A stretch of 64,000 bases of DNA from contig NZ_JACBYQ010000002.1 in assembly GCF_013408295.1 (NCBI RefSeq), positions 1,302,001 to 1,366,000 of the forward strand, read 5' to 3'. How positions within the stretch are numbered: position 1 is the stretch's first letter; each line of letters opens with the position of its first letter. This document shows positions 27,401 to 50,470 of the stretch, one piece after another. The position numbers were made by a program, and so were the translations under genes. Source of the stretch: Psychromicrobium silvestre (GTDB lineage: Bacteria; Actinomycetota; Actinomycetes; Actinomycetales; Micrococcaceae). The notes beneath the pieces were generated by a model, which did not search any database, had not been told where the DNA came from, and saw nothing but the letters and a program-made list of their open reading frames with translations.

Positions 27401-30400
27401 CCGGGCCGCAATGTGGCCATTGACGCCCTGCTGAACGATTCCGATCCGGACGGCGACGCACTACAGGTCAAGGTCGATGGCTTCAACGGCCCGGCCGAGA
27501 TGAAACCGCACCTGAGTCAGCAAGGCAGGGTCATTTTGACCTCGCCGAAAGATCCCGGCGTCTACACGATGAACTACACGATCACCGATAAGAAGTCGAC
27601 GGCGCGAGCCAATATCAAAATGACTGTCACCCCCACCGCGCCCTTGCAAGCGCCGATAGGTCGAGACGATCATGTCACCGAGCAGGATACCCTGGGCAAA
27701 ACAGCGGTGGACGTACCGGTGCTAAAGAACGATGAGGACCCGGACGGCGTTACCGAAGAGCTCAAGCTCAGCATCGAAGCCGGTCACCCCGAGGCCAGCG
27801 TTAACCCGGATGGCACCGTGCGGGTCACGTTGAGTAAAGATCCGCAATTGGTTCCTTACACGCTGACCGATATCGACGGACAGAAGGCCACCGCGATCAT
27901 CTGGCTCCCTGGCTTGGGAAAGCAGTATCCGGTGCTGTCGAAGAACGACCACCTTCAGGTGATGGCCGGTAAGACCGTCGCCATGAACCTGAATGAGTGG
28001 GTCAAGGTGCGTACCGGGCACTCACCCAAGCTGACTCAGGCCGATAAGATATCGCTGATCGGTGGGGACAACAGCAATAAGGATCTGATCGCGAACAACG
28101 GAACCGCCATTAACTACCACGCCAATGCTGATTTCTATGGCCTGGGATCGATCACTTTCGAGGTGATGGATGGGGCTAATCCGCAGGATAACGACGTGCT
28201 GAAGTCCACCTTGACGGTGATGGTCGATGTGATCCCGGATCCGAATAGGAACCGGCCGCCCTCCTTCACCGGAACTACTCTTGAGGTGGCTAAGGGGAAT
28301 ACTGAGGAACTGGATCTGACCACGCTGGCCACCGATCCGGACCCGGACGACAATGCCAAGCTCAAGTTCAAGATCGAGGGGAACAAACCCAGCGATTTCG
28401 ATGTGGATCTGAACGGACAGACGCTCAAGGTCGGGGTCAAGGGCGATGTGAAGCCGGGTGCCAATGCCATCCTTCCGCTTACCGTTACCGATGGTAAAAG
28501 CGACGAGGTCAAAGCACAGATCAACCTGCTGGCCATCTCCACGGATAAGCCGTTAGCGGTGGCGAATGATGACGTGCTTGAGGCGAACGCTGGGGCAACC
28601 AGTACCGTGGATGTGCTGGCCAATGATGTGAATCCGTTCCCGGAGACACCACTTGCGATCACTGACGCCGTGGTTGAGGCCGGCGGAACGAATGTTTCTG
28701 TGAAGGTCACTGGATCGCACGGTCGTATTGAGGTCGGCACGAATGAGGACTTCAAGGGCGATGTGGTGGTGCGCTACACGATTGAGGACGCTACCGGGGA
28801 TTCCGCACGGCGGGTCAATGGTCGGATCCACATCACCGTGAAAGGCAAACCGGATGCGCCGGGGATTCCACGGGTGGTGGAAGCCAAAGACAAGTCGGTG
28901 CTGCTGAATTGGTCTCCGGCAGCTGATAATGGCTCGCCGATCACCGGTTACGAGGTGATCGACTCACAAGGCCATACTCATCCTTGCCCGACTAACACTT
29001 GTTTGATTACTGGACTGACCAATAATCAGAGTTACACCTTCACGGTCAAGGCGATTAACGCCGTCGGCGAGTCTGGGACTTCCGCCAGTTCGGCCTCGGC
29101 AACGCCGGATCGGGCACCGAGCGCTCCGGCAGCGCCCGCTGCAAAGTTCGGCGATAAGGAAATTTCGCTCACTTGGGTGACCCCAACCGGCGATTTCAGC
29201 CCGGTGACCAAATTAAATGTGCAGATTTCCCCTGCCCCGGCCGGGCAGAATCCGCAGAAAACCGTTTCCGGCACCAGCTTGGTTTGGCCTGGCTTGAGCA
29301 ACGGAACAGCCTATACCTTCCGAATCCAGGCCATTAATAAGGCCAAGGAACCCAGCCCGTGGAGCAGCTATTCCGTTAAGCAGGTGCCTGCGGGCGTGCC
29401 CCTGACTCCTGCCGCGCCGACCTCGAAGGCGACCAATCAGGTGGGTAGCTCGAATCAGGCTCAGGTGAATTGGACTGCGCCGGATGGCAATGGCGATAAC
29501 AATATGACCTATACCCTGACGGTTTATCGGGGAACCACGGTGATTCAGACCCTGGCGCCGACGACGGCGACAACGGCGACGGTAACTCTGCCGAACTCAC
29601 AGGAGGGTTATTACTTCTCGGTCAAGGCCAAGAACAAGGCTGGTACCTCTGCGGCCAGCCCGCGTTCTGCGGCACAGCGCTCGATTAGCAGGCCGGACAG
29701 GGTTGCGACTCCGAGTATCGTACCCACCGACACCGCGAATGCTGGTAATAGGATCATCATTAATTTCAAGCCACTGAGCGGGCCAGAATTGCATGGTTCG
29801 TATCCCAGCGAGATGACCTACTACGCCAATATCTCTTCGGGCGCCCAACACGTTCAAGTCTCGCCAGGCAGCATGGTGGCAGCACCGAACGGCACACCGA
29901 CGACGGTTACGATAGTCGCCGAATCCAGAGCCTATGAGGGGGATGGCGACGCCTCCGATCATTCGAATGAGGTTATCCCACACGGCACAGCCAAGGCGGC
30001 CACAGTGAGTGGACAGGACGGCAAACAGGGCGACAAAACGGTCACTTTCACCTGGTCTGAGCCGAGTAACGCAGATGTTCAGGTTACCCAAATCAGTATT
30101 GATGGGGGTGGCTGGTCTAAGGTGCAAGCTAGCGGAAGCATCTCTGTGGGGGACGGTTTTGACCAGAAACACAACATCAAGGTAAGGAATATCAATTCGA
30201 ACAAGCCCGGCGATGTAGGCCCTGTGGCCGGTGCGAGTGCAACCACAGGCGCGGATAATCCTCCGCCCCAGGCCAAGGTCGAAGCCTATCCCGACGACAC
30301 TTGCACGGAGCCCGATGGTCCACACACAACTATTTACAACCCAAGTGGACCCACTTGCGCAGGGAAAGACGGCGGAACTAATCAGAATCCGCCGTTCCCT

Positions 30401-30559
30401 TGGCTAGATATCAATAAGCCGGTGGTGATCGATCGGTGTGGAAGCCCCTGGGGTACCAGCGGTTGGTACCACATCACCGGTGGCCCCTTTGATAATCGAT
30501 GGGTTCGTGCGAATACAACCCGAAAGGCGCCAGGCTCCGGCCCGCTACCGTGTTCTTAG
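24434..30559 (+). CDS. Giant membrane-anchored Ig-like / fibronectin type III repeat protein
   Basis: A 2041-residue surface protein. One N-terminal membrane helix at about residues 16-38 after a basic stretch implies a cytoplasmic N-terminus and a huge exported body; no lipobox or LPXTG is present. Residues 45-390 are beta-rich and may form a propeller. From about 399 to 1470 eleven Ig-like repeats of 92-110 residues follow, most containing NDTDPDGD-like Ca-binding loops (clear at about 422, 523, 710, 806, 1003, 1098), with the ninth lacking the loop. Two or three FN3 domains lie at about 1472-1755. The last 95 residues hold four Cys and a GWYHITGGPFDNRWV block. Proteins of this type head PFNA-like clusters. 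Role: probably adhesion, a cell-wall scaffold, or an export partner of the system downstream. Confidence 0.85.
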   Translation: MALGNVAKRLKSKSRYIAAGSLAVVGALVVAGAVIYPGFTTADVNLNDGSVWVTNKGKNLVGHLNYQSQILDGGFTATTSGFDVLQQASNVFMDNDAGSSLSTVNVPEMALQPEAKLGGGKQTSLGSSVLALVDSGKHSVWLATATTAGSFDDKSTKPTLENQQNPAVVVGLDDAVYAVDGKSGTLTTMTVDDSGQVKEQKSSKIDGLSTDSPLQISVVGDQPVVFDPSGGKLYLPGNKTVQVPDAEGALLQQHGSAADFVAIGTTKGLIQQPLNGSAAQNFDLKSTGTPAAPIQQAGCIHMAWSGLNKYLHFCAGNNNNAIPVPKAGVGSELVFRQNRDVVVLNDTKGGNVWLVNQNMVLVDNWQDLETQTKNNADAKKDSADPSFVNTLPDRTKPNRSPNAKADEFGVRAGRTTLLPVLYNDTDPDGDVLTVQQPSKQPKIGNLETVYGGTGLQITVPPNASSSPETFSYTADDGRGGEASASVTVKVVPDSENHPPAPKRALPTLVLEQGQSLSQNVLSDWADPDGDDVFLVSAKSDDGSANVKTTPDGQLSYADLGISSGLKSLTIVVSDGRETAPRQIKVSVKPAGGAPPLANADFARAVVGQTVTVAPLKNDVDPSGAGLRLAQVERNNTVKISDPADDGTFTFESSKTGAIYLTYQVSNGPQSATGLIRVDVEAKQEDAPPTAVKDLAMLPAGGSSLVDVLGNDTDPSGGVLVVKSVQAPAGSPISATVLDHNVVKLTDLRGLNAPLQLNYVVANAAGSSTGVINVIPIPRPAKLLPPVAKDDDVNVRVGDVVNIKVLANDIDPNGQPLKSPQITQAPTAAQGKLFVDQDQLRFLAGPTAGTVQGIYKITNASGQSESAVVTIHILPADPANNSAPTPKQLTGRVIAGTSQQIQVPLDGIDQDGDSVQLVGIDQVPSLGTVVVGSNYLTYIAAASSAGTDTFSYRVRDRLGAEATATVKVGVAPAEAVNHPPVANDDVISMRPGRNVAIDALLNDSDPDGDALQVKVDGFNGPAEMKPHLSQQGRVILTSPKDPGVYTMNYTITDKKSTARANIKMTVTPTAPLQAPIGRDDHVTEQDTLGKTAVDVPVLKNDEDPDGVTEELKLSIEAGHPEASVNPDGTVRVTLSKDPQLVPYTLTDIDGQKATAIIWLPGLGKQYPVLSKNDHLQVMAGKTVAMNLNEWVKVRTGHSPKLTQADKISLIGGDNSNKDLIANNGTAINYHANADFYGLGSITFEVMDGANPQDNDVLKSTLTVMVDVIPDPNRNRPPSFTGTTLEVAKGNTEELDLTTLATDPDPDDNAKLKFKIEGNKPSDFDVDLNGQTLKVGVKGDVKPGANAILPLTVTDGKSDEVKAQINLLAISTDKPLAVANDDVLEANAGATSTVDVLANDVNPFPETPLAITDAVVEAGGTNVSVKVTGSHGRIEVGTNEDFKGDVVVRYTIEDATGDSARRVNGRIHITVKGKPDAPGIPRVVEAKDKSVLLNWSPAADNGSPITGYEVIDSQGHTHPCPTNTCLITGLTNNQSYTFTVKAINAVGESGTSASSASATPDRAPSAPAAPAAKFGDKEISLTWVTPTGDFSPVTKLNVQISPAPAGQNPQKTVSGTSLVWPGLSNGTAYTFRIQAINKAKEPSPWSSYSVKQVPAGVPLTPAAPTSKATNQVGSSNQAQVNWTAPDGNGDNNMTYTLTVYRGTTVIQTLAPTTATTATVTLPNSQEGYYFSVKAKNKAGTSAASPRSAAQRSISRPDRVATPSIVPTDTANAGNRIIINFKPLSGPELHGSYPSEMTYYANISSGAQHVQVSPGSMVAAPNGTPTTVTIVAESRAYEGDGDASDHSNEVIPHGTAKAATVSGQDGKQGDKTVTFTWSEPSNADVQVTQISIDGGGWSKVQASGSISVGDGFDQKHNIKVRNINSNKPGDVGPVAGASATTGADNPPPQAKVEAYPDDTCTEPDGPHTTIYNPSGPTCAGKDGGTNQNPPFPWLDINKPVVIDRCGSPWGTSGWYHITGGPFDNRWVRANTTRKAPGSGPLPCS

Positions 30560-30603: not shown

Positions 30604-31575
30604 ATGACGATGACCGCGGAGCAGGCCACTTGGTTTGCTGGAACCTTCGAAAAGCTGGTGGCCAATATTGGTCAGGCGGTACTAGGTAAGGCGCATGTGG
30701 TGCGGCTGACGCTGACCGCGATGCTCGCCGAGGGCCATGTGCTGTTCGAGGACGCTCCCGGCACCGGAAAGACCATGCTGGCTCGTGCCTTGGCAGCAAC
30801 CGTGCAGGGCAGTAACTCGCGCATCCAGTTCACCCCGGATCTACTGCCCTCCGATGTCACCGGTGTGACCATCTACGATCAGAAGACGCAGAAGTTTGAG
30901 TTCCATAAGGGGCCGATCTTCGCCACCATTGTGCTTGCCGATGAGATTAACCGTGCCTCGCCGAAGACCCAGTCTGCACTATTGGAGGTAATGGAAGAGT
31001 CTCGGGTCACCGTGGACGGCGTGACCTATGAAGCGGGCCGTCCCTTTATGGTGCTGGCTACCCAGAACCCGATCGAGCAGGCTGGTACCTACCGGCTGCC
31101 GGAAGCGCAGCTGGATCGTTTTCTGATCAAGACCTCCATCGGTTACCCCGATCATGCTTCCACCGTCCAGGTGCTCAGCGGCTCCAGCCAGCGCGACCGT
31201 ACCTCCACCCTGCAAGCCATTATTACCACCGCAGCCGTGGCCGATATGGCGGATCTGGCAGCCACCACACACGCCGACCCGGCGGTGCTGGAATACATCT
31301 CACGGCTCTGCGAAGAAACCCGCAACGCCGCCGAGACCCGGCTGGGCGTCAGCGTCCGTGGTGCTATCGCCATGGTCAGAGCAGCTAAAGTTTGGGCTGC
31401 CTCCCAGGGCCGCAATTATGTGCTCCCCGACGATGTTAAGGAACTGGCTCCTGTGGTCTGGACGCACCGCTTGGTGATGGATCCGGAGGCTGAATTCGCC
31501 GGGGCAACTCCCGACGTCGTCCTCAAGCGCGTCCTCGCTGAGGTGGCCGCGCCGCAGCAGCGCGCCAGCGCCTAA
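30604..31575 (+). CDS. MoxR-family AAA+ ATPase
   Basis: AAA+ ATPase of 323 residues that usually acts as a chaperone for assembly or activation of a partner complex with DUF58/VWA proteins. Seen: Walker [12 protein letters not shown] near residue 52, Walker [21 protein letters not shown] near residue 113, sensor 1 ATQNPIEQ, and arginine-finger region AQLDRFL. ATG at 30604, 44 bases after the Ig-like gene, and followed by DUF58 and transglutaminase-like genes, the standard MoxR-DUF58-TgpA order. It is cytoplasmic. Confidence 0.94.
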
Positions 31576-31606: not shown

Positions 31607-32938
31607 ATGTCGATCAGTTCAATGGCCTCCAACGCCTTGGCCACCCTACGTAAACCGTTCAAGCGGAACAGGGCACGTGGAAGGCTGCACCCCGCCTCCA
31701 TTTTCTCGGAGGCGGGCAAGCTCGCTGGGGCGTTCTTTGGGCCGATCTGGGCCAAGATCTGGGGCTGGCTCAGCAAGTACTTGGGCCCCGTGTTCGCGCC
31801 GATCAGCCCGCTGGGCTGGATGGTTCTCGCCGTGGTGCTGGGACTCTGGATTCTGGGTGGAATCTTCGGCTGGCAGGAGGCTCAGGCGATGGCCCTGCTG
31901 GGCAGCCTGTTGCTGATGATTGCCATCGGGTTCATTATCGGGCGCTCTTCTTATGGGATTGACATGGACTTAGCTCGGACCCGAGTTGCGGTAGGGGATC
32001 AGGCGGTCGGCAGCATCTCGGTCTCAAATACCTCGACTAGGCCACTACTCCCGGCCAGCCTGGAACTGCCCGTGGGCGGTAACACCGCGGTTTTTCACCT
32101 GCCCCGGATGAAACCCCAGGAAGTGCACGAGGACCTCTTCACCATTCCCACTAGTCGGCGCGCCGTGATTGCGGTGGGCCCGGTGCGTTCGGTGCGCGCC
32201 GACCCCTTGCGGCTTTTGCGCCGCCAGGTGCTGTGGACCGAGCAAACCGACCTGTACGTGCACCCGCGGACCACGCCGTTGCTTGGCTCGGCTGCCGGCT
32301 TCCTCAAGGATCTTGAGGGGCTGCCCACAACCGAACTTTCCAGCGCGGACGTCTCCTTTCACGCGCTACGGGATTACATTCCGGGTGACGACCGGCGACA
32401 TATCCACTGGAAGACGACGGCGCGCACCGGCAAGCTGATGGTTCGCCAGTTCGAAGAGACCCGGCGGGCTCATATCGCGATAGCACTGAGCATCAACACG
32501 AGCGAGTATGAGTCCGAGACGGCATTCGAACTAGCTATTTCCGCGGCGGCATCGATTGGCAGGCAAGCCATTCGGGAGCAGCGTGAGTTGAGCGTGCATG
32601 TGCAGCGTGGTCCCTTAAACTGCGCCACCGGCCGCACCCTGATGGACGATATGACTCGAATTGTGGGTGGAGATCGGCTCCCAGCGAGTGTCGATTTAGT
32701 TCGGGAGATCTCCGATGCCGTGCCCGGTGCTTCGGTGATGTTCTTCGTGGTGGGTTCGCTGGTCACCCCGGCGCAACTTCGTGCCGCGGCCGCCGCGGTG
32801 CCCCTGGGTGTACGTACCTTCGCGATCCGCTGCCTGGAGGAGGCCCCAGCGAGTCGAGCCAATATTGCCGATCTCACCGTGCTGACTCTCGGCGAACTGA
32901 GCGATCTTGCCCTGGTGTTGCGAAAGGCGGCGGCATGA
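31607..32938 (+). CDS. DUF58 domain membrane protein
   Basis: A 443-residue protein with a basic N-terminus, two or three membrane helices between about residues 65 and 125, and a cytoplasmic DUF58 domain whose signature GDDRRHIHWKTTARTGKLMV lies near residue 260, followed by a VWA-like fold. DUF58 proteins act with MoxR ATPases; their precise job is unsettled. The 3' end overlaps the transglutaminase-like gene by 4 bases (ATGA). Confidence 0.9.
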   Translation: MSISSMASNALATLRKPFKRNRARGRLHPASIFSEAGKLAGAFFGPIWAKIWGWLSKYLGPVFAPISPLGWMVLAVVLGLWILGGIFGWQEAQAMALLGSLLLMIAIGFIIGRSSYGIDMDLARTRVAVGDQAVGSISVSNTSTRPLLPASLELPVGGNTAVFHLPRMKPQEVHEDLFTIPTSRRAVIAVGPVRSVRADPLRLLRRQVLWTEQTDLYVHPRTTPLLGSAAGFLKDLEGLPTTELSSADVSFHALRDYIPGDDRRHIHWKTTARTGKLMVRQFEETRRAHIAIALSINTSEYESETAFELAISAAASIGRQAIREQRELSVHVQRGPLNCATGRTLMDDMTRIVGGDRLPASVDLVREISDAVPGASVMFFVVGSLVTPAQLRAAAAAVPLGVRTFAIRCLEEAPASRANIADLTVLTLGELSDLALVLRKAAA

Positions 32939-35505
32939 GTATCCCGTCCAGTAATGGCCAGCCGGTCAAAAAAGCTAAACAAGTCAAGCAGCTGAAGCCC
33001 TCTGCCTTCAGCTCGGGACGGCCACGTTGGCATTACTGGCTCGATGCCGGGGTGCTGTTCGTGCTGCTCGGCATCGCAGTGCTTGGCTTCGCACCGAGTT
33101 TTGGCGGTGACCCCGCCTACCTGATCGCAGGGCTCGGCGGAATTGCCGTTGGCCTGCTGATTGCCGCAGCGGGAGCGCACTGGAGACTCGGGCTAGTCCT
33201 CATGGTTGCGCTCAGCTTTGTTACTTATATGCTGCTCGGCAGTGCACTGGCTGCACCGCATGAGTCCTTACTCAGCTTCATCCCGACCGGAAGCTCGCTC
33301 CGAGGTTTACTGCTTGGCATTGTCTTCTCCTGGAAGCAGTTACTCACCATTGCCGCGCCGGTTGGCGTCTCGGTGGAGGTGCTAGTGGTTCCATATCTCT
33401 CGGCACTGTTCACCTCGGTAGTGGCAGGGACCTTGGCCTGGCGACTGCGCCGTCCTTACTGGACTATGCTGCCCGTGCTTGCTCTGTTCATCACCAGTAT
33501 TGCCTTTGGCACCTCGGAAGCATTTTTCCCGGTAATCCGCGGTGCTTTGCTCGGGATCGGAGGCATTGCCTGGTTGGCTTACCGGAGGGAGCTTGCCCAA
33601 CGGGAACCGGGTGCGCAGCGTGCCGCCGCCCGTCCGGCGGAGGCTGGCAAACCCTTGGCGGCCACCGCGAACCGGAACCGTCGGCTGGTGGCGGGTGCCG
33701 CCGTCGTACTGCTTGCTGGTGGGGTAACCGTTGCCGCGGCTCCGCTGATTTCCCAGGCTGACGACCGTCAGGTGCTCCGGGATGCGGTGATCCCTCCGCT
33801 GGACCCACACGATCTACCCTCGCCGCTGACCGACTTCCGCCGCTATATCGACCAGGACAAGGAAAAGGTTCTGTTTTCGGTGACTGGGCTGCCCCAGGAC
33901 GGACGGGTACGGCTTGCAGCGCTGGATGATTATGACGGCATCGTTTTCAATGTGGATGGACCGAGCTCCGGCTCCTTCGCGCCGATCGGTGACCCTAAAG
34001 CCCTGGGTGGTAACGCCGGTGGCGAGGGTACCAGCCAGCTCAGCTTCGAAATCCAGGACTACTCCGGGGTCTACATTCCGGATGCTCGGGTGGCCCGGTC
34101 GCTGCAGTACGAACAGGCCGATGGTGCGGAAAGCCCGCTCTATCTGAATACCGAATCGGATACCGCAGTGAAGCTCGACGGCGTCAAGACGGGGGATAAG
34201 TACAACGTCTCGGTAGCTTTCCCCAACCGGGTGGACCCGAAGGATTTAGCCAAGGCAAATTTCGGCGGGGTGACCATGCCGAAACTGGAGAACGTCCCGC
34301 AACTGATCGGGACCAAGGCCAACGATATTGCCGGGGACAAGGCAACTCCGTTCGCGAAGATCGAGGCGCTGGTCAATTATTTCCGCCAGGCCGGTAAATA
34401 CAGTACGGGTGCGGGCGGATCTGTACAGAGTCTCTCCGGTCATGGCGCAGCCCGGATCAACAAATTCCTCAGCGGCAAGCAGATCGTCGGCAACGATGAG
34501 CAATACGCCGTAGCTACTGCCTTGATGGCCAACTACTTGGGTATCCCAGCGCGGGTGGTGATGGGGTTCTATCCCGATCCGAAGGATGCCGACTACGGTG
34601 CCAGCACGGTAGAGATCAAAGGTTCGGATGTGCATGCCTGGGTCGAGGTGAACTTTGACGGGTACGGCTGGGTACCTTTCGACCCCACTCCGGACAAGGA
34701 CCATGTGCCCAACCCTCCGGATCCACAAAACGCCTCATCGCCCAAGCCGCAGGTATTGCAACCGCCGCCTCCGCCGCAGGAACAGGCCGAACTGCCACCG
34801 GACAGCTCTCCGGATGCTTTGGACAATGATAAGAAGAAGCAGGATCCCTGGGCTCTTCTAGGCCAGATCCTATTGATCATCGCCTATGCCCTGATTCCCT
34901 TGGTAATCTTGGCTATTCCCTTCGTGCTGATTGCCTTGTTGAAGAGGCGACGGCGGAAGAAGCGGCTCAGCCAAGGCGATCCGGCGCAACGGGTGGGTGG
35001 CGGCTGGAATGAGATGCTCTCCTTGGCCACGGACCTAGGTGCGGCCGTCAATCCCAAGCAGACCCGCAGGGAGACAGCTAATACCTTGGTAGAGGCTTTC
35101 CCCGGTTCGCAGAGCAGCACGACGGCGCTTGCCCAGCGTGCTGATTCGGTGATCTTTGGTGCCGGGCAGCCGAGCGAGCAGGAAGTGCAAAGCTTCTGGG
35201 GCATCGTTGATGACTCATTAAAGGATATGAATCAGTCAGTGGGGCGCTGGCACCGGCTGCGCGCTAAATTCTCGCCCCGCTCGCTGCTGAGCGAAGCAGG
35301 CGTTGCGCTTGCTATTCGTTCGAAGTCTTCGACGGGGAAACCCTCGCCCGTAGGCCCTTCGCCGGTAGCGCAGGGCGGCACCAAGAAACCCGAACAACAG
35401 CCGGAGGCGGGGGAACCGCCGAGCCAGCAACCGGGGAATTACGCTGAGCCGGACGAACAGACCGTGGCTCGGCCACGCCCAGAGGATCCGGGGACGCAGC
35501 GATGA
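32935..35505 (+). CDS. TgpA-like transglutaminase-fold membrane protein, catalytic Cys absent
   Basis: An 856-residue protein with a bundle of six or so membrane helices in the first 270 residues, an extracytoplasmic transglutaminase-core domain at about 500-590, a Pro-rich linker, one more membrane helix near 645-668 and a cytoplasmic tail. The core ends look normal: GIPARVVMGF, H567 in VHAWVEV and D583 in PFDPTP. But where active enzymes have Cys-Glu-Gln, this reads N520-D521-E522-Q523, so the nucleophile is gone. It should be a binding or structural pseudoenzyme. ATGA overlaps join it to the genes on both sides. Confidence 0.88.
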   Translation: MSIPSSNGQPVKKAKQVKQLKPSAFSSGRPRWHYWLDAGVLFVLLGIAVLGFAPSFGGDPAYLIAGLGGIAVGLLIAAAGAHWRLGLVLMVALSFVTYMLLGSALAAPHESLLSFIPTGSSLRGLLLGIVFSWKQLLTIAAPVGVSVEVLVVPYLSALFTSVVAGTLAWRLRRPYWTMLPVLALFITSIAFGTSEAFFPVIRGALLGIGGIAWLAYRRELAQREPGAQRAAARPAEAGKPLAATANRNRRLVAGAAVVLLAGGVTVAAAPLISQADDRQVLRDAVIPPLDPHDLPSPLTDFRRYIDQDKEKVLFSVTGLPQDGRVRLAALDDYDGIVFNVDGPSSGSFAPIGDPKALGGNAGGEGTSQLSFEIQDYSGVYIPDARVARSLQYEQADGAESPLYLNTESDTAVKLDGVKTGDKYNVSVAFPNRVDPKDLAKANFGGVTMPKLENVPQLIGTKANDIAGDKATPFAKIEALVNYFRQAGKYSTGAGGSVQSLSGHGAARINKFLSGKQIVGNDEQYAVATALMANYLGIPARVVMGFYPDPKDADYGASTVEIKGSDVHAWVEVNFDGYGWVPFDPTPDKDHVPNPPDPQNASSPKPQVLQPPPPPQEQAELPPDSSPDALDNDKKKQDPWALLGQILLIIAYALIPLVILAIPFVLIALLKRRRRKKRLSQGDPAQRVGGGWNEMLSLATDLGAAVNPKQTRRETANTLVEAFPGSQSSTTALAQRADSVIFGAGQPSEQEVQSFWGIVDDSLKDMNQSVGRWHRLRAKFSPRSLLSEAGVALAIRSKSSTGKPSPVGPSPVAQGGTKKPEQQPEAGEPPSQQPGNYAEPDEQTVARPRPEDPGTQR

Positions 35506-36974
35506 ACGCCGCTACATTGACCTGCCGAAATTGTGGCACCAAGCTGGCTGCCGGAGCCTCCTTTTGCACCCTCTGCGGTGCCGCCGTCTACAACCGGGCC
35601 GGGCGTACCAGCCAGCAGAGTCCGGCCGAGCCGCTGACGGAAAACGACCAGAAGATCCAGATTCCGGGTATTATCCCGGTGACCCCCTTTAGTAGGGGGC
35701 CGGTGATAGCGCCGAAGACGGACGAGCTGGGAGACGAGATGGCGCGGTTGAATCTGGTCGGTGCGGGGGCGGGAAAACGGCTGGGTGCCAAGCTCATCGA
35801 TATGGTGCTTCCCTCGATACTTTCCGCGGTCGGAGCCATCGTAGGGTTCCTCAACATTGTGGTCACCCGGGTCAACGATCAAGCCGTCAGAGTTGACTCA
35901 ACTTGGTTGCTGATCTGGTTCGGCGCCGCTTCGCTGCTGAGTCTGGTCTATTGGGTGCTGTTGTGGTTCTGGGAAGCTAAAGCGGGCAAGACCCCGGGGA
36001 ACCTGCTGCTTGGTCTACGCACCGCGGACATGAAGGGCTTGGCTCCCGGAATGTTGGCGATTTTCGTGCGTAACCTGATCATTACCATCGGTTTCGGAAT
36101 CGCGCTGGCTGGTGGTGTTCTGGTGATGCTTTCCAGCGCCTGGGATAAGAACGGCAAACGCCAGGGCTGGCAGGACAAAGCCGCGCACACCTTGGTCTTC
36201 GATATCAAGGCCGGGCGGGACCCGCTCACCTCGGGTGGTATCGATGGTCCAGCGTCTTTTGCACCGGTAGAGCTTCCTGGCATGATGCCGGTGAACTCGC
36301 CGGTGGCTGGCGCTTCGCAAGCCGTTGCGCCGCAGGCTGCTGCGCCGCAGGCTGGGCAGCTCCAGAGTGCTCAGGCCTTTTCGCCTCAAGCCGCACCGCA
36401 GCCCGCTGTCCCGCCGGCAGCGCCGCTCGCTCCGCTGGTCATTTCACCGGAGCCCTCCGGTCCGGTCCGGATCGAGTCAGCCCCGGCGCTCGGGAACCCC
36501 TTTGCCCCGCCAGCAGTCCAGGCTCCTGCATCGTGGCAAGCCCCGCCCGAACCTCAGGCTCCCGAGGCTTGGCAGCCAATGCCTGGCACTCCGCATCCGG
36601 ATGAGGAAGCGGGAGAGACTAAGTTCCGGCCACGAGGCGTGACGCCGAGTGTCGCGATGACTTTTGACGACGGAAGAACAGCCATCGTGAGTGGTGCGGC
36701 ACTGATCGGACGTAATCCCTCTGGATACGATAGTGAGGTGATTGATCAGCTGATCGCGGTTCCTGATGAGAGCCGCTCTATTTCCAAAACCCATTTGCAT
36801 GTGCAGGCTGCAGCCGAGGGACTGTGGGTGACCGACCGCCAATCGACGAACGGCAGCGCCGTCGTCAGCGCCGAGGGGATGGTTAACCGCCTGACCCCGG
36901 GCAATGCCGTGTTGGCTCCGTTTGGCTCCACCATCCGCTTCGGCGACCGCAGCCTGGCCGTGGGCAAGGCATGA
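35502..36974 (+). CDS. Zinc-ribbon / RDD membrane / FHA protein
   Basis: A 490-residue three-part protein. Residues 8-27 form a zinc ribbon (CRNCG and CTLCG). An RDD-family membrane domain with three or four helices spans about 85-235 (GKRLGAKLIDMVLPSIL). A long Ala/Pro/Gln linker leads to a C-terminal FHA domain at about 385-490 with the phosphothreonine-binding residues in place: IGRNPS, SISKTHLHV and STNGS. The FHA domain is a likely partner of the kinase encoded 3 kb downstream. ATGA overlaps with both neighbours. Confidence 0.88.
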   Translation: MNAATLTCRNCGTKLAAGASFCTLCGAAVYNRAGRTSQQSPAEPLTENDQKIQIPGIIPVTPFSRGPVIAPKTDELGDEMARLNLVGAGAGKRLGAKLIDMVLPSILSAVGAIVGFLNIVVTRVNDQAVRVDSTWLLIWFGAASLLSLVYWVLLWFWEAKAGKTPGNLLLGLRTADMKGLAPGMLAIFVRNLIITIGFGIALAGGVLVMLSSAWDKNGKRQGWQDKAAHTLVFDIKAGRDPLTSGGIDGPASFAPVELPGMMPVNSPVAGASQAVAPQAAAPQAGQLQSAQAFSPQAAPQPAVPPAAPLAPLVISPEPSGPVRIESAPALGNPFAPPAVQAPASWQAPPEPQAPEAWQPMPGTPHPDEEAGETKFRPRGVTPSVAMTFDDGRTAIVSGAALIGRNPSGYDSEVIDQLIAVPDESRSISKTHLHVQAAAEGLWVTDRQSTNGSAVVSAEGMVNRLTPGNAVLAPFGSTIRFGDRSLAVGKA

Positions 36975-38134
36975 GCGAGAACCCGGTTGAACCACTGACC
37001 GACGACCTCGATGCCGATACCGTGCAAAGCCCAGATGGCCTAAGCCCAGCACCTGTAGCCGAGACGGCCGAACGGATCAACGCGTATCAGATCACGGTGC
37101 ACAGCGGATTCCAGACCGATCGCGGACTGCGCCGGGAACTGAATGAGGACTCCTTCCTGGCCATCGATCCTATTTTCGCGGTAGCCGATGGGATGGGTGG
37201 TCACGAGGCAGGCGAGGTTGCCTCCAGGGAATGCATTCGAACCCTGAGCGAGTCGCAGGCCTTGGCCTCCGGATCGCGCCGGGCGGCGGCAGCCGATATC
37301 CAGACGGCATTGCTGCTGGCAGATGCCAGAATTCGTGAGCTAACCGACGCCCGAGCAGGTACCACTGTCACCGGCGTGGTGCTCGTTGAGGAGGGAGACA
37401 CCCCATATTGGTTGGTCTTCAACGTCGGCGATTCGCGGACGTACCGACTCAGCAAGGGAAAATTTGAGCAGGTGAGCGTGGACCACTCCGAGGTTCAGGA
37501 GATGGTCGATGCTGGCTATATCAGTCGCTCCGAGGCGCTCGTTCATCCGCGACGCCATGTGGTCACCCGTGCGCTAGGTACCGGGGACGATATTGAGGCC
37601 GACTACTGGCTGATCCCGGTGGAGGACGGCGACCGTTACCTGATCTGCTCGGATGGGCTCACCGGGGAGCTCTCCGACGATCAGATCTTCCGAACCATCT
37701 CCACCCTGGCTCAGCCTCAGGAAGCCGCCGATTCACTGGTCCAAGCCGCGCTGCGCTCGGGAGGACGTGACAATGTCACCGTCATAGTGGTGGATGCCAC
37801 CGATGTGCTGCAAGAGCGAGAATTGTTGACCACCGCACCGCGACCCGAAGTGGAGGCCGATACCTTGCCGCGCGGATTTCCCGCGGTCCAGGAGCCGATC
37901 GACGTGGTTTCCGAAGTCCCCGTTGCCGCTGAGGATGAAGCCCCACCGGAGGTCTTCGAGCCGGAAGCATTCGAAGAGGAAGCCTGGCGAGGCGAAACAA
38001 TCGCCGCCGAAACATTTGAGCACGAAACCTTTGAGCCAGGACCATTAGACCTAATAAAGGATATTCTGGATGAGTCCGAAGCCGCTGCGGCCGAATCGGA
38101 CCACGAGGATGGGGGAGAACCGGATGAGAATTAG
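36971..38134 (+). CDS. PP2C-family Ser/Thr protein phosphatase
   Basis: Metal-dependent phosphatase of 387 residues, reversing phosphorylation by the locus kinase. Motifs: RGLRRELNEDSFL near residue 52, VADGMGGHEAGEVAS near residue 73, NVGDSRTYRL near residue 152, ICSDGLTGELSDDQI near residue 222, and GGRDNVTVIVVD near residue 258. The last ~110 residues are a strongly acidic, presumably disordered tail. No membrane helix, unlike PstP. It overlaps the RDD/FHA gene by 4 bases and the next FHA gene by 11. Confidence 0.93.
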   Translation: MSENPVEPLTDDLDADTVQSPDGLSPAPVAETAERINAYQITVHSGFQTDRGLRRELNEDSFLAIDPIFAVADGMGGHEAGEVASRECIRTLSESQALASGSRRAAAADIQTALLLADARIRELTDARAGTTVTGVVLVEEGDTPYWLVFNVGDSRTYRLSKGKFEQVSVDHSEVQEMVDAGYISRSEALVHPRRHVVTRALGTGDDIEADYWLIPVEDGDRYLICSDGLTGELSDDQIFRTISTLAQPQEAADSLVQAALRSGGRDNVTVIVVDATDVLQERELLTTAPRPEVEADTLPRGFPAVQEPIDVVSEVPVAAEDEAPPEVFEPEAFEEEAWRGETIAAETFEHETFEPGPLDLIKDILDESEAAAAESDHEDGGEPDEN

Positions 38135-39884
38135 CTACACCCCTGGCCCCTGGCTGGGTCTGCTGCGATCGGACACCCTGATAGTGCTCGATGAGAGCAC
38201 CGAGGAAAAAGTCATTACGGAGCTCTGGGATTTCCTGGGTAACGCACCCAAGATTCACGAAGTGCTTAACAAAGTCACTACCGGCTTCGGCACCGAACTA
38301 ACCGGGATGCCTTCTTTCGGCATTATTACCCTGGGGGAGCGGCCGCTGGCCATCCTGCGCGGCGAGATGAACTTGCTGGCCCGCTCCGGTACCTCAGAAT
38401 TTGAGGTCTCCGGCCGGGAGGTCACCACTTGGAGCGAGCGGTCGCTTCCGACGGCGGATCAGCTCACCTTGCGACTGGGCGGCGTAGGCGAGAGTCGACC
38501 CGAGCTGCCGCTTGCCGAAGGCGTGGTGCGGCTTTCCAGCCTGCTACTGGGCGAACCAGCCAGTGCCGAACCAGCCGGTGCCGAGCAAATTAGCGCCGAG
38601 CAGGTTAACGCCGGGCAGATCGAGCCCACGGCCTCTGCGGATACTGCACTGCCGTCAGTGCCCATGACGCCGATTGTCCCCGCGCAGCCAGCTTTTGCTC
38701 CCCAACAGCCCGCCGAGCCGGAGCCCGCCGAGCAGGAGTCTGCCGGTCCAGCGGAGACCCCGTTCATCACTCCGGTGCAGGCTCCCGAGCTTTCCCAGGA
38801 ACAGCCTCCAGCCCAAGTCGATGAGGCTGATTTGAGCAGGACGCTTGCCAGTTCAGACTTCGCAGACCTAGCCGAGCAACCGCTAAGCCAGGCTGCCGAG
38901 CAGCCGATTGAACCTGGGCCGTCAACGGCCGGAGCCTTGGCCGAGAGCGAAGAGGCCGATCAGCCGCTTGTCACCGAGGCCCAGGAGAGCACGACGAGCT
39001 ATGACCACCTTTGGGACCGTACCGTATCGCGTTCGGTTGAAGACGCCGCAATCCGGGCCTCCGAAGAAGCCGAAACCCCTTTGGAACCCGTTGTCGCAGC
39101 AGAGCAGGCCGCCCCGGCGGCTGAGGAACTCGCCGCAGAAGCGCCCGAAGTACCAGGAGCGCCCGAAGTAGCCGAGGCACCGCCCGCTTTCGGGCAGCCC
39201 GTGCAGCCGCCGTCGACCGCTCCGGCATCCCCTTTTGCGAGTGGGTTGATTGATTCGGTGCCCTGGCAGCACACCGATGCTGACCCCTCCGCGGCCTCCG
39301 TTCAAGCCGGAGTCCCACAACCCGCTCCGGCCAATGCGGACCACGATGGACAGACCGTGATGCGCACGGAACTGGATGATCAGCCCGCGCCACAGCAAGC
39401 CTTCGCCGAGCCCGCCGTGGGCACGGGTGCCTTAGTGCTGGCCCGGCTATGTGCTAACGGTCATGCCAATCCGCCGACGTATGCGCGTTGCGCCGCCTGT
39501 GGTCAGCCGATGAGCGGCGATGCGCTCCAGGTGCGACGCCCGGTGCTCGGTCAGATGCGAATCTCCACGGGCGAAGTGATCGATCTGGATCGTTCCCTCG
39601 TGGTGGGTAGACAGCCATCGGTATCCCGGGTGAACGGTGAAGGAATGCCGAAGCTGATCCAGGTGCGCAGCCAGGCCGGCGATATCTCGCGTTCTCATGT
39701 CGAGATCCGCCTGGAAGGCTGGGATGTGGTTCTGGTCGATTTGAAGGCGACGAACGGCACCGTCCTGGTGCGTGACGGTCAGCCGCCACGCAGGCTCGGC
39801 CAAGGCGAGCAGGCGCTCCTGCTCAACGGCGATATTGCGGAGCTGGGGGAGGATGTGTCTTTGAGGTTTGAGGGCCTGTTGTGA
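38124..39884 (+). CDS. FHA protein with zinc ribbon and acidic low-complexity linker
   Basis: A 586-residue cytoplasmic protein. The first ~145 residues (MRISYTPGPWLGLLRSDTL) are a conserved domain I cannot name. Residues 145-440 are Ala/Glu/Pro/Gln-rich, with imperfect copies of SAEPAGAEQ. A zinc ribbon (CANGH, CAACG) near 455 precedes a C-terminal FHA domain with VVGRQPS, ISRSHVEI and ATNGT, so phosphothreonine binding should be intact. ATG at 38124 fits the conserved N-terminus and has GGGGGAG upstream; the frame opens earlier at 38070. GTGA overlap with the kinase gene. Confidence 0.85.
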   Translation: MRISYTPGPWLGLLRSDTLIVLDESTEEKVITELWDFLGNAPKIHEVLNKVTTGFGTELTGMPSFGIITLGERPLAILRGEMNLLARSGTSEFEVSGREVTTWSERSLPTADQLTLRLGGVGESRPELPLAEGVVRLSSLLLGEPASAEPAGAEQISAEQVNAGQIEPTASADTALPSVPMTPIVPAQPAFAPQQPAEPEPAEQESAGPAETPFITPVQAPELSQEQPPAQVDEADLSRTLASSDFADLAEQPLSQAAEQPIEPGPSTAGALAESEEADQPLVTEAQESTTSYDHLWDRTVSRSVEDAAIRASEEAETPLEPVVAAEQAAPAAEELAAEAPEVPGAPEVAEAPPAFGQPVQPPSTAPASPFASGLIDSVPWQHTDADPSAASVQAGVPQPAPANADHDGQTVMRTELDDQPAPQQAFAEPAVGTGALVLARLCANGHANPPTYARCAACGQPMSGDALQVRRPVLGQMRISTGEVIDLDRSLVVGRQPSVSRVNGEGMPKLIQVRSQAGDISRSHVEIRLEGWDVVLVDLKATNGTVLVRDGQPPRRLGQGEQALLLNGDIAELGEDVSLRFEGLL

Positions 39885-41599
39885 GCGCTAAGCGGCCGCC
39901 TGCGCCGCCGCCAGAGATTCCGGGATACAACTATATTTCCTTGCTCGGATCTGGTGGCTTTGCTGACGTTTTCCTCTATGAGCAGGATCGACCGCGGCGT
40001 AGGGTCGCCGTCAAAGTCTTGATTTCCGATTTGAAGACCGAAGGTGCCCGTCGCCGCTTCGAATCCGAAGCCAACCTGATGGCTCAGCTCTCCAGCCATC
40101 CTTATATCGTTACCATCTACGAGGCAGAGGTCACCGCCGCAGGGCACTCCTATTTGGCCATGGAGTACTGCTCCAGGCCCAGCCTGGACGTACGCTACCG
40201 GCGGGCTCGGTTCAGCGTGGACGAGGTGCTTGCCGTCGGAGTCCAGGTTTCCTCCGCAGTAGAGACCGCACATCGAGCCGGGATCGTGCATCGCGACATT
40301 AAGCCCGCGAACATCTTGGTCACCGACTACAACCGCCCCGCGCTCACCGATTTCGGTATTTCCGCCACCATGGATTCCTCCGATGAGGACGATGCCGGGA
40401 TGTCCATTCCCTGGTCGCCGCCGGAGTCCTTTAGCGGTCGCAATGTGGACGGGGTAAAGGTCGATGTCTGGGCGCTTGGTGCCACCCTGTACACGCTTTT
40501 GGCGGGCCGCTCACCCTTCGTAATTCCCGGGGCGGACAACTCACAGCGGGAGCTGATCAACCGGATTAGCTCGGCCCCGTTGCCGCGCCTGGGCCGGGCC
40601 GATGTGCCGGAGGCGCTCGAACTCGTCTTGGCTACCGCAATGGCGAAGTCTCCGGGCTCGCGCTACGCCTCGGCTCAGGACTTCGCCCGGGCGCTGCAAC
40701 GCGTGCAAACCGAGCTTGGCTTATCGATGACCCCTTTCGAGGTGCAGGAGGATGTTCACCTCGAGGAGCGCACCCCGGAGGAGGACAATACCGAGGAAAC
40801 CCGGATCCGCAGCGTGGTTTCGATCGATCCCGATGCCACCACCGGGAAATCCTTCAATGGTCGAACTGGTGCCAGATTTCCGGCGATGGAATGGGGCTCG
40901 ACGGCCGATCGCGCGGGCACTATTGACCGCAACCCCACCGCAGACAGCATTCCGACGACGGCTCGCGAGGCCCAAACGTCTTTGCCGAGCTTTACCCAGG
41001 GACCGAGCATCAGCGCGGTACCGGGGGTCAACGCGGCCCGGGCTCAACAAGGTTTCCTTGCCGCTCCGCCCACTTGGACTCAGAGCCCGGGAGCCGAGCC
41101 GGAAGAGGCCTTGGCGCAGACTGTGAACCGGCCGGTGGCGGCACCGCCGGAGACCCCAAGCGAGCCCGAAAAATCCGCGGGTAAGGCCCGGCTGCTCTGG
41201 TCGGTGATCGGCGGCGTGGTGATCGTCGCTGCCGTGGTGATCGCGATTGTGATGGTTAATCTCGGTGGTGCACCGCAGGGCAACCCGAAGGCTTCCATCA
41301 CCGTGAGCCAGACCCCGAGCGGTATTAATTTCGGTAAACAGGTGCCGATGGTGACAAACCTGAAGTCCACTCCGGGCGACGGCGGATCGAATTGGAGCTG
41401 GAAAAATCCGGACCCGCAAGACGGTGATAAATATCAATACGCTTCGGTCAGCCAACTCAGCACAGATCCCGATTTCAAAATCATCACTACGCCCGCTGTT
41501 TTCGTAGCCGACAACAATCAGGGAAAATCCTGTATTTCGGTGATTCTGATCCGAAAAGATGGCTCCTCATCCGAGGAAGCAAAAAAGTGTTCTCCCTGA
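39881..41599 (+). CDS. Transmembrane Ser/Thr protein kinase (PknB-like, no PASTA)
   Basis: Hanks-type kinase, 572 residues. All catalytic elements are visible: Gly loop LGSGGFADVF, Lys45 in VAVKV, HRDIKPANIL with Asp139, and DFG with Asp157. After the kinase domain (to about 280) comes a Pro/Thr-rich linker, one membrane helix at about 436-460, and an extracellular domain of ~110 residues with two Cys (SCISV, KKCSP), with no PASTA repeats. GTG start at 39881. Likely phosphorylates the FHA proteins and ATPase around it. The topology, kinase fold inside and small domain outside, is that of type VII EssB/YukC. Confidence 0.92.
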   Translation: MSAKRPPAPPPEIPGYNYISLLGSGGFADVFLYEQDRPRRRVAVKVLISDLKTEGARRRFESEANLMAQLSSHPYIVTIYEAEVTAAGHSYLAMEYCSRPSLDVRYRRARFSVDEVLAVGVQVSSAVETAHRAGIVHRDIKPANILVTDYNRPALTDFGISATMDSSDEDDAGMSIPWSPPESFSGRNVDGVKVDVWALGATLYTLLAGRSPFVIPGADNSQRELINRISSAPLPRLGRADVPEALELVLATAMAKSPGSRYASAQDFARALQRVQTELGLSMTPFEVQEDVHLEERTPEEDNTEETRIRSVVSIDPDATTGKSFNGRTGARFPAMEWGSTADRAGTIDRNPTADSIPTTAREAQTSLPSFTQGPSISAVPGVNAARAQQGFLAAPPTWTQSPGAEPEEALAQTVNRPVAAPPETPSEPEKSAGKARLLWSVIGGVVIVAAVVIAIVMVNLGGAPQGNPKASITVSQTPSGINFGKQVPMVTNLKSTPGDGGSNWSWKNPDPQDGDKYQYASVSQLSTDPDFKIITTPAVFVADNNQGKSCISVILIRKDGSSSEEAKKCSP

Positions 41600-41641: not shown

Positions 41642-42346
41642 ATGCCTGATTTGACGATAGATTTTTGCGGCGAATGGTACGAGCCCTCCGAAACGGAGGT
41701 GTTCAGCATCGGTCGCGAAGGTGACTTAGAGGTTGATGACAACCCTTATTTGCACCGTAAGTTCCTCCAGATCGCCTATTACGACGGCATCTGGTGGTTG
41801 ACCAACGCCGGGAGCATTCTCTCTGCCACGGTTGCCGATGCCAAGGGCGGCATGCAGGCATGGCTTGCTCCCGGGGCCCGGATTCCGCTGGTCTTTGGCC
41901 AGATCAATGTGGTTTTTACCGCCGGGCCAACCACCTATGAATTCTCTGCGCACCTGAAGAGCCCCTCTTTCAAGCAACAGAGCTCCGAGGAGGATTCGGT
42001 CGGCGACACCACAATCGGCCCGGTAATTTTCACCGACTCACAGAAAGCCGTGATTGTTGCGCTTGCCGAGCCGATGCTGCGGCGCGAAGGCACCGGGTTT
42101 ACCGCGATTCCGTCCTCCGCGGAGGCCGCACGGCGGCTGGGCTGGGCACTGACCAGATTCAATCGAAAACTGGACAATGTCTGCGACAAACTGGACCGGG
42201 TCGGAGTGGCCGGGCTGCGCGGTGGCGGCGGAAAGCTGGCTACCAATCGTCGGGCGCGATTGGTAGAACACTCGGTGACCTCACATTTGGTCACCGCCGC
42301 AGATCTACCGCTTTTGGAGACCATAAAATTACTGGACGAAGAATAA
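41642..42346 (+). CDS. FHA-like protein with C-terminal helix-turn-helix region
   Basis: A 234-residue protein. The N-terminal ~95 residues look like an FHA fold (FSIGREGDLEVDDNPYLHRK) but lack the Asn-Gly of the second binding loop, so phosphopeptide recognition is doubtful. Residues 125-234 (TDSQKAVIVALAEPML; SSAEAARRLGWALTRFNRK) resemble a winged helix, usual for proteins next to this kind of ATPase. DNA binding is not established. ATG at 41642, preceded by GAGAAGG; 16 bases before the EssC-like gene. Confidence 0.75.
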   Translation: MPDLTIDFCGEWYEPSETEVFSIGREGDLEVDDNPYLHRKFLQIAYYDGIWWLTNAGSILSATVADAKGGMQAWLAPGARIPLVFGQINVVFTAGPTTYEFSAHLKSPSFKQQSSEEDSVGDTTIGPVIFTDSQKAVIVALAEPMLRREGTGFTAIPSSAEAARRLGWALTRFNRKLDNVCDKLDRVGVAGLRGGGGKLATNRRARLVEHSVTSHLVTAADLPLLETIKLLDEE

Positions 42347-46890: not shown

Positions 46891-46974
46891 TCTTATTAGT
46901 TGCTCAGCCGGACAAGCTAGCTGAGCGTAGAGTCCAGTGGAACTTCCAGGACTCTTACACGAAAGGTGCATCTC

Positions 46975-50470
<3,496 letters not shown>

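What the first reader, a model, noticed from the sequence alone, without database searches (positions are those of the whole stretch)
39881..41599. An active kinase may occupy the EssB/YukC position
EssB/YukC of firmicute type VII systems has a cytoplasmic pseudokinase fold, one membrane helix and an extracellular domain. The kinase here has the same topology but keeps Lys45, Asp139 and Asp157, and lies two genes before an EssC-like ATPase in a locus without EssB. It could be a catalytically live counterpart or ancestor-like form of that subunit.
Basis: inference. Interest (0 to 1): 0.7.

Follow-up and report, generated by a model that had tools for sequence, protein, structure and literature searches.

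The report
Live kinase beside secretion ATPase
A bacterial gene cluster for a type VII-like secretion ATPase carries a working-looking membrane protein kinase with a fibronectin-like outer domain and a tail full of likely docking sites for the ATPase; it does not look like a relative of the firmicute subunit EssB, but may do a switchable version of EssB's docking job.

Summary
In detail: 39881-41599 encodes a 572-aa kinase with K45, D139 and D157, one membrane helix and a 111-aa outer domain, two genes before an EssC-like ATPase; the genome has no YukC/EssB match. EssB kinship is not supported: the nearest solved relatives are PknB/PknA/StkP, and the outer domain models as an all-beta Fn3 fold, while YukC's is all-helical. 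An active-site-conserving kinase with EssB's topology beside a type VII ATPase is already published (PMC11217815: TscD, and TsdD of T7SSd). The gene set also matches the bifidobacterial PFNA operon. New here: a Thr-x-x-Arg array in the kinase's cytoplasmic linker, enriched in 20 linkers and in 11 fetched later, at chance in Ser, reversed and other-kinase controls; and ATPase FHA phosphothreonine residues intact in 105 of 106 rows with the kinase but 1 of 4 without. Best reading: phospho-switched docking of the kinase tail to the ATPase FHA domain. Kinase and ATPase genes are separable, so a core-subunit role is unproven.

The parts
39881..41599 (+). Transmembrane Ser/Thr kinase, 572 aa
   Evidence: Pfam Pkinase 8.3e-42; catalytic residues kept in all ungapped rows of 96
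39926..40705 (+). Kinase domain (about residues 16-275), P+1 loop GMSIPWSPPE
   Evidence: this loop is in 0 of 28 other transmembrane kinases of relatives, all 28 of which have GTxxY
40799..41122 (+). Cytoplasmic linker with Thr-x-x-Arg sites T307 (ETRIR), T347 (TIDR) and T414 (TVNR)
41204..41263 (+). Transmembrane helix, about residues 442-461
   Evidence: hydropathy
41264..41596 (+). Outer domain (residues 462-572), Fn3 fold
   Evidence: model mffe960c19bc5, pLDDT 84.3, seven strands and no helix; Fn3 domains at Z about 11, e.g. 2.1 A over 84 residues
41642..42346 (+). 234-aa protein (called g234 here): FHA domain plus helical, winged-helix-like C-terminal half; no Pfam family
   Evidence: 0 Pfam families at E 0.1; model md7c170865f63; Foldseek best hits FHA domains, Rv1747 FHA-1 E 8.3e-5; 'winged-helix-like' is my reading of the helices
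42363..46811 (+). EssC/TsdC-like FHA-FtsK ATPase, 1482 aa
42690..42950 (+). FHA domain of the ATPase with phosphothreonine-site residues G131, R132, S146, H149, N167, G168
   Evidence: that these residues make the site is recalled from FHA biology
46966..47247 (+). WXG100-like protein, 93 aa
   Evidence: weak, below cut-offs
38070..39884 (+). FHA-domain protein, 604 aa (possible zinc ribbon before the FHA domain)
   Evidence: Pfam FHA 7.9e-6; the zinc ribbon was read by eye only
36971..38134 (+). PP2C-type phosphatase (Stp1-like), 387 aa
35502..36974 (+). Zinc-ribbon plus RDD membrane protein with FHA-like C-terminus
   Evidence: RDD 1.4e-17; FHA-type profile hit weak, E 0.0055
32935..35505 (+). 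Transglutaminase-like membrane protein
31607..32938 (+). DUF58 protein
30604..31575 (+). MoxR-type AAA ATPase
24434..30559 (+). 2041-aa surface protein with Big_9 and fn3 domains

Best explanation
The kinase is an active envelope-sensing Ser/Thr kinase of a T7SSd-like locus that also holds the PFNA gene set. Its Fn3 outer domain contacts something in the cell envelope. The kinase then phosphorylates threonines in Thr-x-x-Arg sites of its own cytoplasmic linker, and perhaps in the phosphatase tail. The phosphorylated sites are bound by the intact FHA domain near the N-terminus of the secretion ATPase, and possibly by the other FHA proteins of the operon. This brings the kinase to the ATPase and gates its assembly or activity; the PP2C phosphatase resets it. 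It would thus do EssB's FHA-docking job in a reversible, phosphorylation-dependent way, without being an EssB. Shown by computation: active-site residues, topology, Fn3 fold, gene order, enriched motif, intact FHA residues and their association with presence of the kinase. Inferred: ligand, autophosphorylation, FHA binding, and an effect on secretion.
For: Catalytic residues kept in all ungapped rows of 96. Linker motif T[VMIL]xR: 25 times against 3.6 in shuffles over 20 linkers from loci chosen below 75% ATPase identity; Ser version 5 vs 3.5, reversed motif 2 vs 3.8. In 11 linkers fetched after the motif was defined: 16 vs 3.2, reached by 0 of 1000 shuffles; Ser 3 vs 2.8, reversed 2 vs 3.2. 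In 28 other transmembrane-kinase linkers of relatives: 1 vs 2.2. A TRxR-type site after the kinase domain is in 89 of 93 linkers (18 of the 20 less related), a T[VMIL]xR site within 55 residues of the membrane in 80 of 93 (14 of 20). Two EssC paralogues of the same genome with no kinase nearby lack R132 and S146. Fn3 fold. Literature: in T7SSb the YukC pseudokinase binds the YukB FHA region, apparently independently of phosphorylation (PMC9600267, passages); bifidobacterial Pkb2 phosphorylates the MoxR of its own operon (PMC8430577, passages).
Against: Four of the 31 ATPase loci of the order sample that I examined are in genomes without such a kinase, so the ATPase persists without it, and one of these (G067) keeps intact FHA residues. 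One kinase-less change (L038, N to H) is also seen in a kinase-bearing member of the same family (L031), so it may mean nothing; counting only changes of R, S or loss of the domain it is 2 of 4 against 0 of 106. In 6 of 14 genomes with g234 but no ATPase orthologue over 840 bits, the transmembrane kinase sits with fn3 and MoxR and no EssC-like gene is seen in the fetched 20 kb. The motif is not enriched in the transglutaminase tail, the RDD linker or g234; in the FHA protein it was enriched in the first set (13 vs 2.2) but in the second no more than Ser (4 vs 1.3 both); in PP2C tails T[VMIL]xR was 6 vs 0.4 in the first set and 0 vs 0.2 in the second, where only the looser T..R is enriched (5 vs 0.7, five tails). 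Rows are related, so p values overstate independence. Some linkers of the second set begin inside the kinase domain. No binding, phosphorylation or secretion data exist in my calls for this locus.
Confidence: 0.48

Rival explanations
1. The kinase serves the fn3-MoxR-DUF58-transglutaminase (PFNA) envelope module; the type VII ATPase is a neighbour only, and its FHA domain reads other phosphoproteins.
For: The order PP2C-FHA-kinase-g234-fn3-MoxR-DUF58 occurs without EssC in the fetched 20 kb in several genomes. In five genomes with both, the kinase module and the ATPase lie far apart (G083, G054, G047, G031) or on different contigs (G105). Four genomes have the ATPase without the kinase. Pkb2 phosphorylates MoxR (PMC8430577, passages).
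Against: FHA residues go with presence of the kinase. g234 is present in 29 of 32 genomes with the ATPase orthologue and 14 of 87 without, Fisher p 6e-14, not corrected for kinship. In the 78 named loci with the kinase the order is kinase, g234, ATPase.
Confidence: 0.32
2. A transcription switch: the kinase tail recruits the 234-aa FHA plus winged-helix-like protein, which controls the operon.
For: g234 lies between kinase and ATPase, is well conserved (mean column identity 67% over 28 sequences) and has an FHA domain with a helical C-terminal half. The NCBIfam model of the ESX-1 transcription regulator EspM matches the ATPase's FHA stretch (E 7e-4), so FHA-bearing regulators occur in the type VII world.
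Against: The canonical Ser of the phosphothreonine site is not kept in g234 (N-P-Y-L-H-R). DNA binding was not tested. It does not explain the ATPase FHA residues. It is compatible with the best explanation.
Confidence: 0.13
3. One reading: the kinase is a live homologue or ancestor-like form of EssB.
For: Same order of domains; EssB not found in the genome.
Against: Outer domain all-beta Fn3 against all-helical in YukC (PMC9600267, passage). No Pfam YukC match. Nearest solved chains are PknB/PknA/StkP (best 60 of 2758 shown).
Confidence: 0.03

Closest known systems
T7SSd (TsdA, C, D, H, I) of Actinomycetota, kinase TsdD (PMC11217815, section 9 and passages)
   Same: FHA-bearing EssC-like ATPase with conserved phosphothreonine residues, transmembrane kinase, WXG100 protein, large Ig-like surface protein.
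   Different: TsdD's C-terminal region is described as extensively helical; here it models as Fn3. Here phosphatase, further FHA proteins, MoxR, DUF58 and transglutaminase are in the cluster; the paper's five core components do not include them. TsdH was not searched for. No direct sequence comparison with Olsenella TsdD was made.
PFNA operon of Bifidobacterium, kinase Pkb2 (PMC8430577, PMC6803598, passages)
   Same: Gene set kinase, fn3, AAA/MoxR, DUF58, transglutaminase, in some species PP2C and FHA; kinase with one membrane helix and a variable C-terminal region.
   Different: The passages read name no EssC-type ATPase and no WXG100 ('WXG' and 'ESAT' occur 0 times in PMC8430577). Gene order in the window differs. 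No direct sequence comparison with Pkb2.
T7SSb EssB/YukC
   Same: Cytoplasmic kinase-like fold, one membrane helix, outer domain, beside an FHA-bearing ATPase.
   Different: EssB is a pseudokinase (PMC12599244 passage) with an all-helical outer domain, and its FHA contact appears to need no phosphorylation (PMC9600267 passages).
PknB/PknA/StkP kinases
   Same: Nearest solved kinase domains (best 2.8e-30).
   Different: Different P+1 loop, and no enriched Thr-x-x-Arg in linkers of other transmembrane kinases of relatives.

Membership tests
EssB/YukC | Degraded catalytic motifs (pseudokinase) | tested here: not met
   K45, D139, D157 present and conserved
EssB/YukC | All-alpha-helical outer domain | tested here: not met
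   Model has seven strands and no helix; literature passage for YukC
EssB/YukC | Match to Pfam YukC PF10140 | tested here: not met
   Not listed for the protein at E up to 5 (HMMER filters drop most weak matches); 0 in the genome
EssB/YukC | Binds FHA region of the ATPase | not testable with these tools
   Only indirect: FHA residues go with presence of the kinase
T7SSd | EssC-like ATPase with N-terminal FHA keeping phosphothreonine residues | tested here: met
T7SSd | Membrane Ser/Thr kinase | tested here: met
T7SSd | Helical C-terminal region of TsdD (as modelled in the paper) | tested here: not met
   Fn3 fold here; the section read does not say whether this is defining
T7SSd | WXG100 protein TsdA | tested here: inconclusive
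   WXG100-like gene directly downstream, below curated cut-offs
T7SSd | Large Ig-like TsdI | tested here: inconclusive
   2041-aa Big_9/fn3 protein in the cluster; no comparison with TsdI
T7SSd | TsdH, small one-helix protein | not tested
   No search was made
PFNA operon | Core genes kinase, fn3, AAA, DUF58, transglutaminase together | tested here: met
PFNA operon | Order kinase-fn3-AAA-DUF58-transglutaminase | tested here: not met
   In the window fn3-MoxR-DUF58-TGM come first and the kinase later; kinase-g234-fn3-MoxR-DUF58 order is found in other genomes
PFNA operon | Sequence homology of the kinase to Pkb2 | not tested
   No Bifidobacterium Pkb2 was fetched; the nearest named record is a Bifidobacteriaceae MAG locus, L136

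The most novel reading that the evidence does not exclude
T7SSd-type systems switch their secretion ATPase by phosphorylation: a sensor kinase writes phosphothreonine-x-x-Arg docking sites on its own membrane-proximal tail, and the ATPase FHA domain reads them. EssB would be the constitutive, phosphorylation-free version of the same kinase-fold-to-FHA contact. The bifidobacterial PFNA operon, studied as an immune-sensing cluster, would be the signalling half of such a secretion system.
Probability: 0.38. Interest if true: 0.75.

Novelty: new variant of a known kind. Interest (0 to 1): 0.5.

Why it matters
How T7SSd-type secretion is controlled is open. The 2024 survey suggests control by threonine phosphorylation; the parts of it that I read name no acceptor sites. 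Here there are specific, conserved candidate sites, a natural control (genomes and paralogues without the kinase in which the FHA site is mostly changed or gone), and many relatives such as Arthrobacter in which to test it. It also ties the PFNA operon, studied for host immune sensing, to a secretion ATPase.

Tried and rejected
EssB homology: rejected on fold, Pfam and active site. EssB was not seen in the kinase's PDB sequence list (best 60 of 2758 shown) nor among the outer-domain fold matches shown (50 rows each); such absences alone prove nothing.

A motif shared by many cluster proteins: first suspected by eye in the window's transglutaminase, RDD, FHA, PP2C and kinase proteins. Tests support it for the kinase linker; for the FHA protein in the first set only; for PP2C tails as T[VMIL]xR in the first set and only as the looser T..R in the second (five tails); not for transglutaminase, RDD, g234, DUF58, MoxR, fn3 or ATPase (ATPase 45 vs 37.2). 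ligA, four sequences, gave 6 vs 2.4 with a shuffle maximum of 7, which I take as chance.

Rows dropped: linker counts used 93 of 96 kinases (L043, L078, L131 dropped). The less related set is 21 loci, 20 with a linker. The second set lost L143 (no helix called) and L155, L166, L167, L168 (no PPE match), excluded L141, L142, L145, L146, L151 beforehand as distant kinases, and L152, L153 as own-genome controls. A first control run dropped 20 of 30 loci because my pattern was too strict (10 linkers, 1 vs 0.6); repeated with a wider pattern it gave 28 linkers from 21 loci, 7 loci being duplicates and 2 without a helix. Those 30 loci are the best-scoring ones fetched from ten genomes, not all kinases there. 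In the FHA table L070 (cut by its contig) is left out of both groups, and L043 and L078, whose kinase is cut by the end of the stretch, count as having it.

blastp missed the kinase of L139 under its default statistics; a profile search found it. The 143 loci L026-L058 and L061-L170 were therefore re-checked with that profile; L139 is not among the 96 aligned kinases.

Ubiquitin-like N-terminus of the ATPase: suggestive only (redesigned ubiquitin E 0.0042; YukD in 2 of 25 members, window's own not; hhalign probability 6.6).

No structure of the full kinase or of a complex was run (both jobs went to the outer domain and g234). A first alignment of YukD rows had three rows on the wrong strand and was redone. 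Papers: PMC11217815 abstract, section 9 and passages; PMC9600267, PMC8430577, PMC6803598 and PMC12599244 passages only; others listing only. Novelty searches.
Full report
What was claimed.

Setting. The plus-strand genes run: 2041-aa Big_9/fn3 surface protein, MoxR, DUF58, transglutaminase-like, RDD protein, PP2C, FHA protein, kinase, 234-aa protein (g234), EssC-like ATPase, WXG100-like protein, then a gene I read as ligA by eye, with overlapping starts and stops from DUF58 to the kinase. The nearest ATPase among the named records kept is from a Renibacterium MAG (81%), then Arthrobacter. ATPase orthologues over 840 bits occur in 32 of 119 genomes of the order; one (G030) is split over two contigs and one (G116) matches only from residue 212 on. 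Of the 80 named loci kept, 78 hold the kinase; the other two are cut by contig ends, one of them (L078) holding only its tail.

Prior art. PMC11217815 (abstract, section 9 and passages) defines T7SSd in Actinomycetota with kinase TsdD and an ATPase whose FHA phosphothreonine residues are conserved, and raises control by threonine phosphorylation. For the T7SSc kinase TscD it states EssB-like topology with a conserved active site. So the core of the finding is in print. The bifidobacterial PFNA operon (PMC8430577, PMC6803598; passages) has the same gene set, with no secretion ATPase named in the passages read. The five bifidobacterial papers with 'PFNA' among the 20 of 77 listed show 0 occurrences of 'type VII secretion', and the T7SS survey shows 0 of 'PFNA'. 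Within these searches I found no paper that joins the two; the library lacks most subscription papers.

Not EssB. The nearest solved kinases are PknB, PknA and StkP. The outer domain, modelled from 48 sequences, is all beta (pLDDT 84.3) and matches Fn3 domains: Foldseek best E 0.0024, none at 0.001; Z about 11, e.g. 2.1 A over 84 residues; best PDB profile hit an interleukin-13 receptor chain at E 0.0077. Single sequences give no significant Pfam match. YukC's outer domain is all-helical (PMC9600267 passage). The paper describes TsdD's C-terminal part as helical too, so this is also a variant within T7SSd.

Linker motif. I noticed Thr-x-x-Arg by eye in the window and in a listing of kinase linkers, so one search is not blind. 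In 20 linkers of loci below 75% ATPase identity, T[VMIL]xR occurs 25 times against 3.6 in shuffles (maximum 11 of 300); Ser and reversed versions are at chance. The set of 11 linkers from loci fetched later, many with another gene arrangement, gave 16 against 3.2, with 0 of 1000 shuffles as high. Twenty-eight other transmembrane-kinase linkers, from loci of ten relatives, gave 1 against 2.2, and the four other kinases of the own genome gave 0, 0, 1 and 0, the last having almost no linker. Of 93 usable linkers, 89 have a TRxR-type site just after the kinase domain, 80 have T[VMIL]xR within 55 residues of the membrane, and 92 have at least one T[VMILR]xR. In the FHA protein and PP2C tail the results differ between the two sets, as told under evidence against; transglutaminase, RDD, g234, DUF58, MoxR, fn3 and ATPase are not enriched.

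FHA coupling. Of 111 ATPases, many from close species, 107 keep all six FHA residues GRSHNG. With the kinase in the locus (97 rows) or elsewhere in the genome (9 rows) 105 of 106 are intact, the exception being one N-to-H change (L031). In four genomes without the kinase at E 1e-50 (G090, G062, G116, G067), one is intact (L040), one has N-to-H only (L038, same change and family as L031), one has R, S and N changed (L039) and one lacks the domain in its open frame (L055). The two other EssC-like genes of the own genome, with none of its five kinases nearby, lack R132 and S146.

Against a core-subunit role. Four of the 31 ATPase loci of the order sample that I examined (one of the 32, G030, was not fetched) are in genomes without the kinase. 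g234 is found strongly in 43 of 119 order genomes: 29 with the ATPase orthologue and 14 without. Of the 14, a transmembrane kinase with no EssC-like blastp hit in the fetched 20 kb occurs in six (L148, L149, L156, L159, L163, L164), though more distant EssC-like matches exist elsewhere in those genomes. Five have no such kinase in the stretch (L157, L158, L160, L161, L162), L155 has a form without a membrane helix, and L147 and L154 have the kinase with a divergent EssC-like gene nearby. So kinase module and ATPase gene can be apart.

Mechanism. The most economical reading is a switchable docking: kinase-tail phosphothreonines read by the ATPase FHA domain, reset by PP2C. In T7SSb the same two partners (kinase fold, FHA) meet apparently without phosphorylation. 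The kinase's activation segment is acidic, has the P+1 loop GMSIPWSPPE, and lacks a further Thr in 57 of 93 sequences, so activation may not need the usual loop phosphorylation; that is inference. The preference of FHA domains for phosphothreonine over phosphoserine, and their reading of the +3 residue, is recalled, not from a call.

Verdict. Observation confirmed; EssB homology not supported; EssB-like function plausible in a phospho-switched form; class already described, with new and testable detail.

Noticed in passing
42363-42662: The first 100 residues of the ATPase look ubiquitin/YukD-like (redesigned ubiquitin E 0.0042; YukD in 2 of 25 members), although the T7SSd survey reports no ubiquitin-like protein; such a domain may be fused to the ATPase here. 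Weak evidence.
   Followed up: partly
L056 9775-14214 (own genome C1, near 747954) and L058 reverse strand (own genome C1, near 1323519): Two further EssC-like ATPases in the same genome, without a kinase nearby and lacking the FHA residues R and S.
   Followed up: partly
41642-42346: A well conserved 234-aa protein with no Pfam family: FHA domain plus helical, winged-helix-like half, with a conserved TT stretch between them (T124 invariant in 28 rows). Found strongly in 43 of 119 order genomes and at E up to 1e-10 in 12 of 296 phylum genomes.
   Followed up: partly
L037 / genome G039: Seven matches to this kinase class in one genome, five of them on contig C27, which also holds the ATPase; one of the seven is a fragment with a stop.
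   Followed up: no
L065: A record titled Sporosarcina carries this locus with an ATPase 73% identical, like those of Arthrobacter: contamination or transfer.
   Followed up: no
L155 (genome G002): A kinase with a GMSLPW loop, HYD in place of HRD, an extra N-terminal part and no membrane helix seen, in a genome without an EssC match at E 1e-30.
   Followed up: no
L038, L039, L055, L040: Loci that keep the ATPase in genomes where the kinase was not found; in L039 phosphatase, FHA protein and g234 remain in order with the kinase alone missing.
   Followed up: yes
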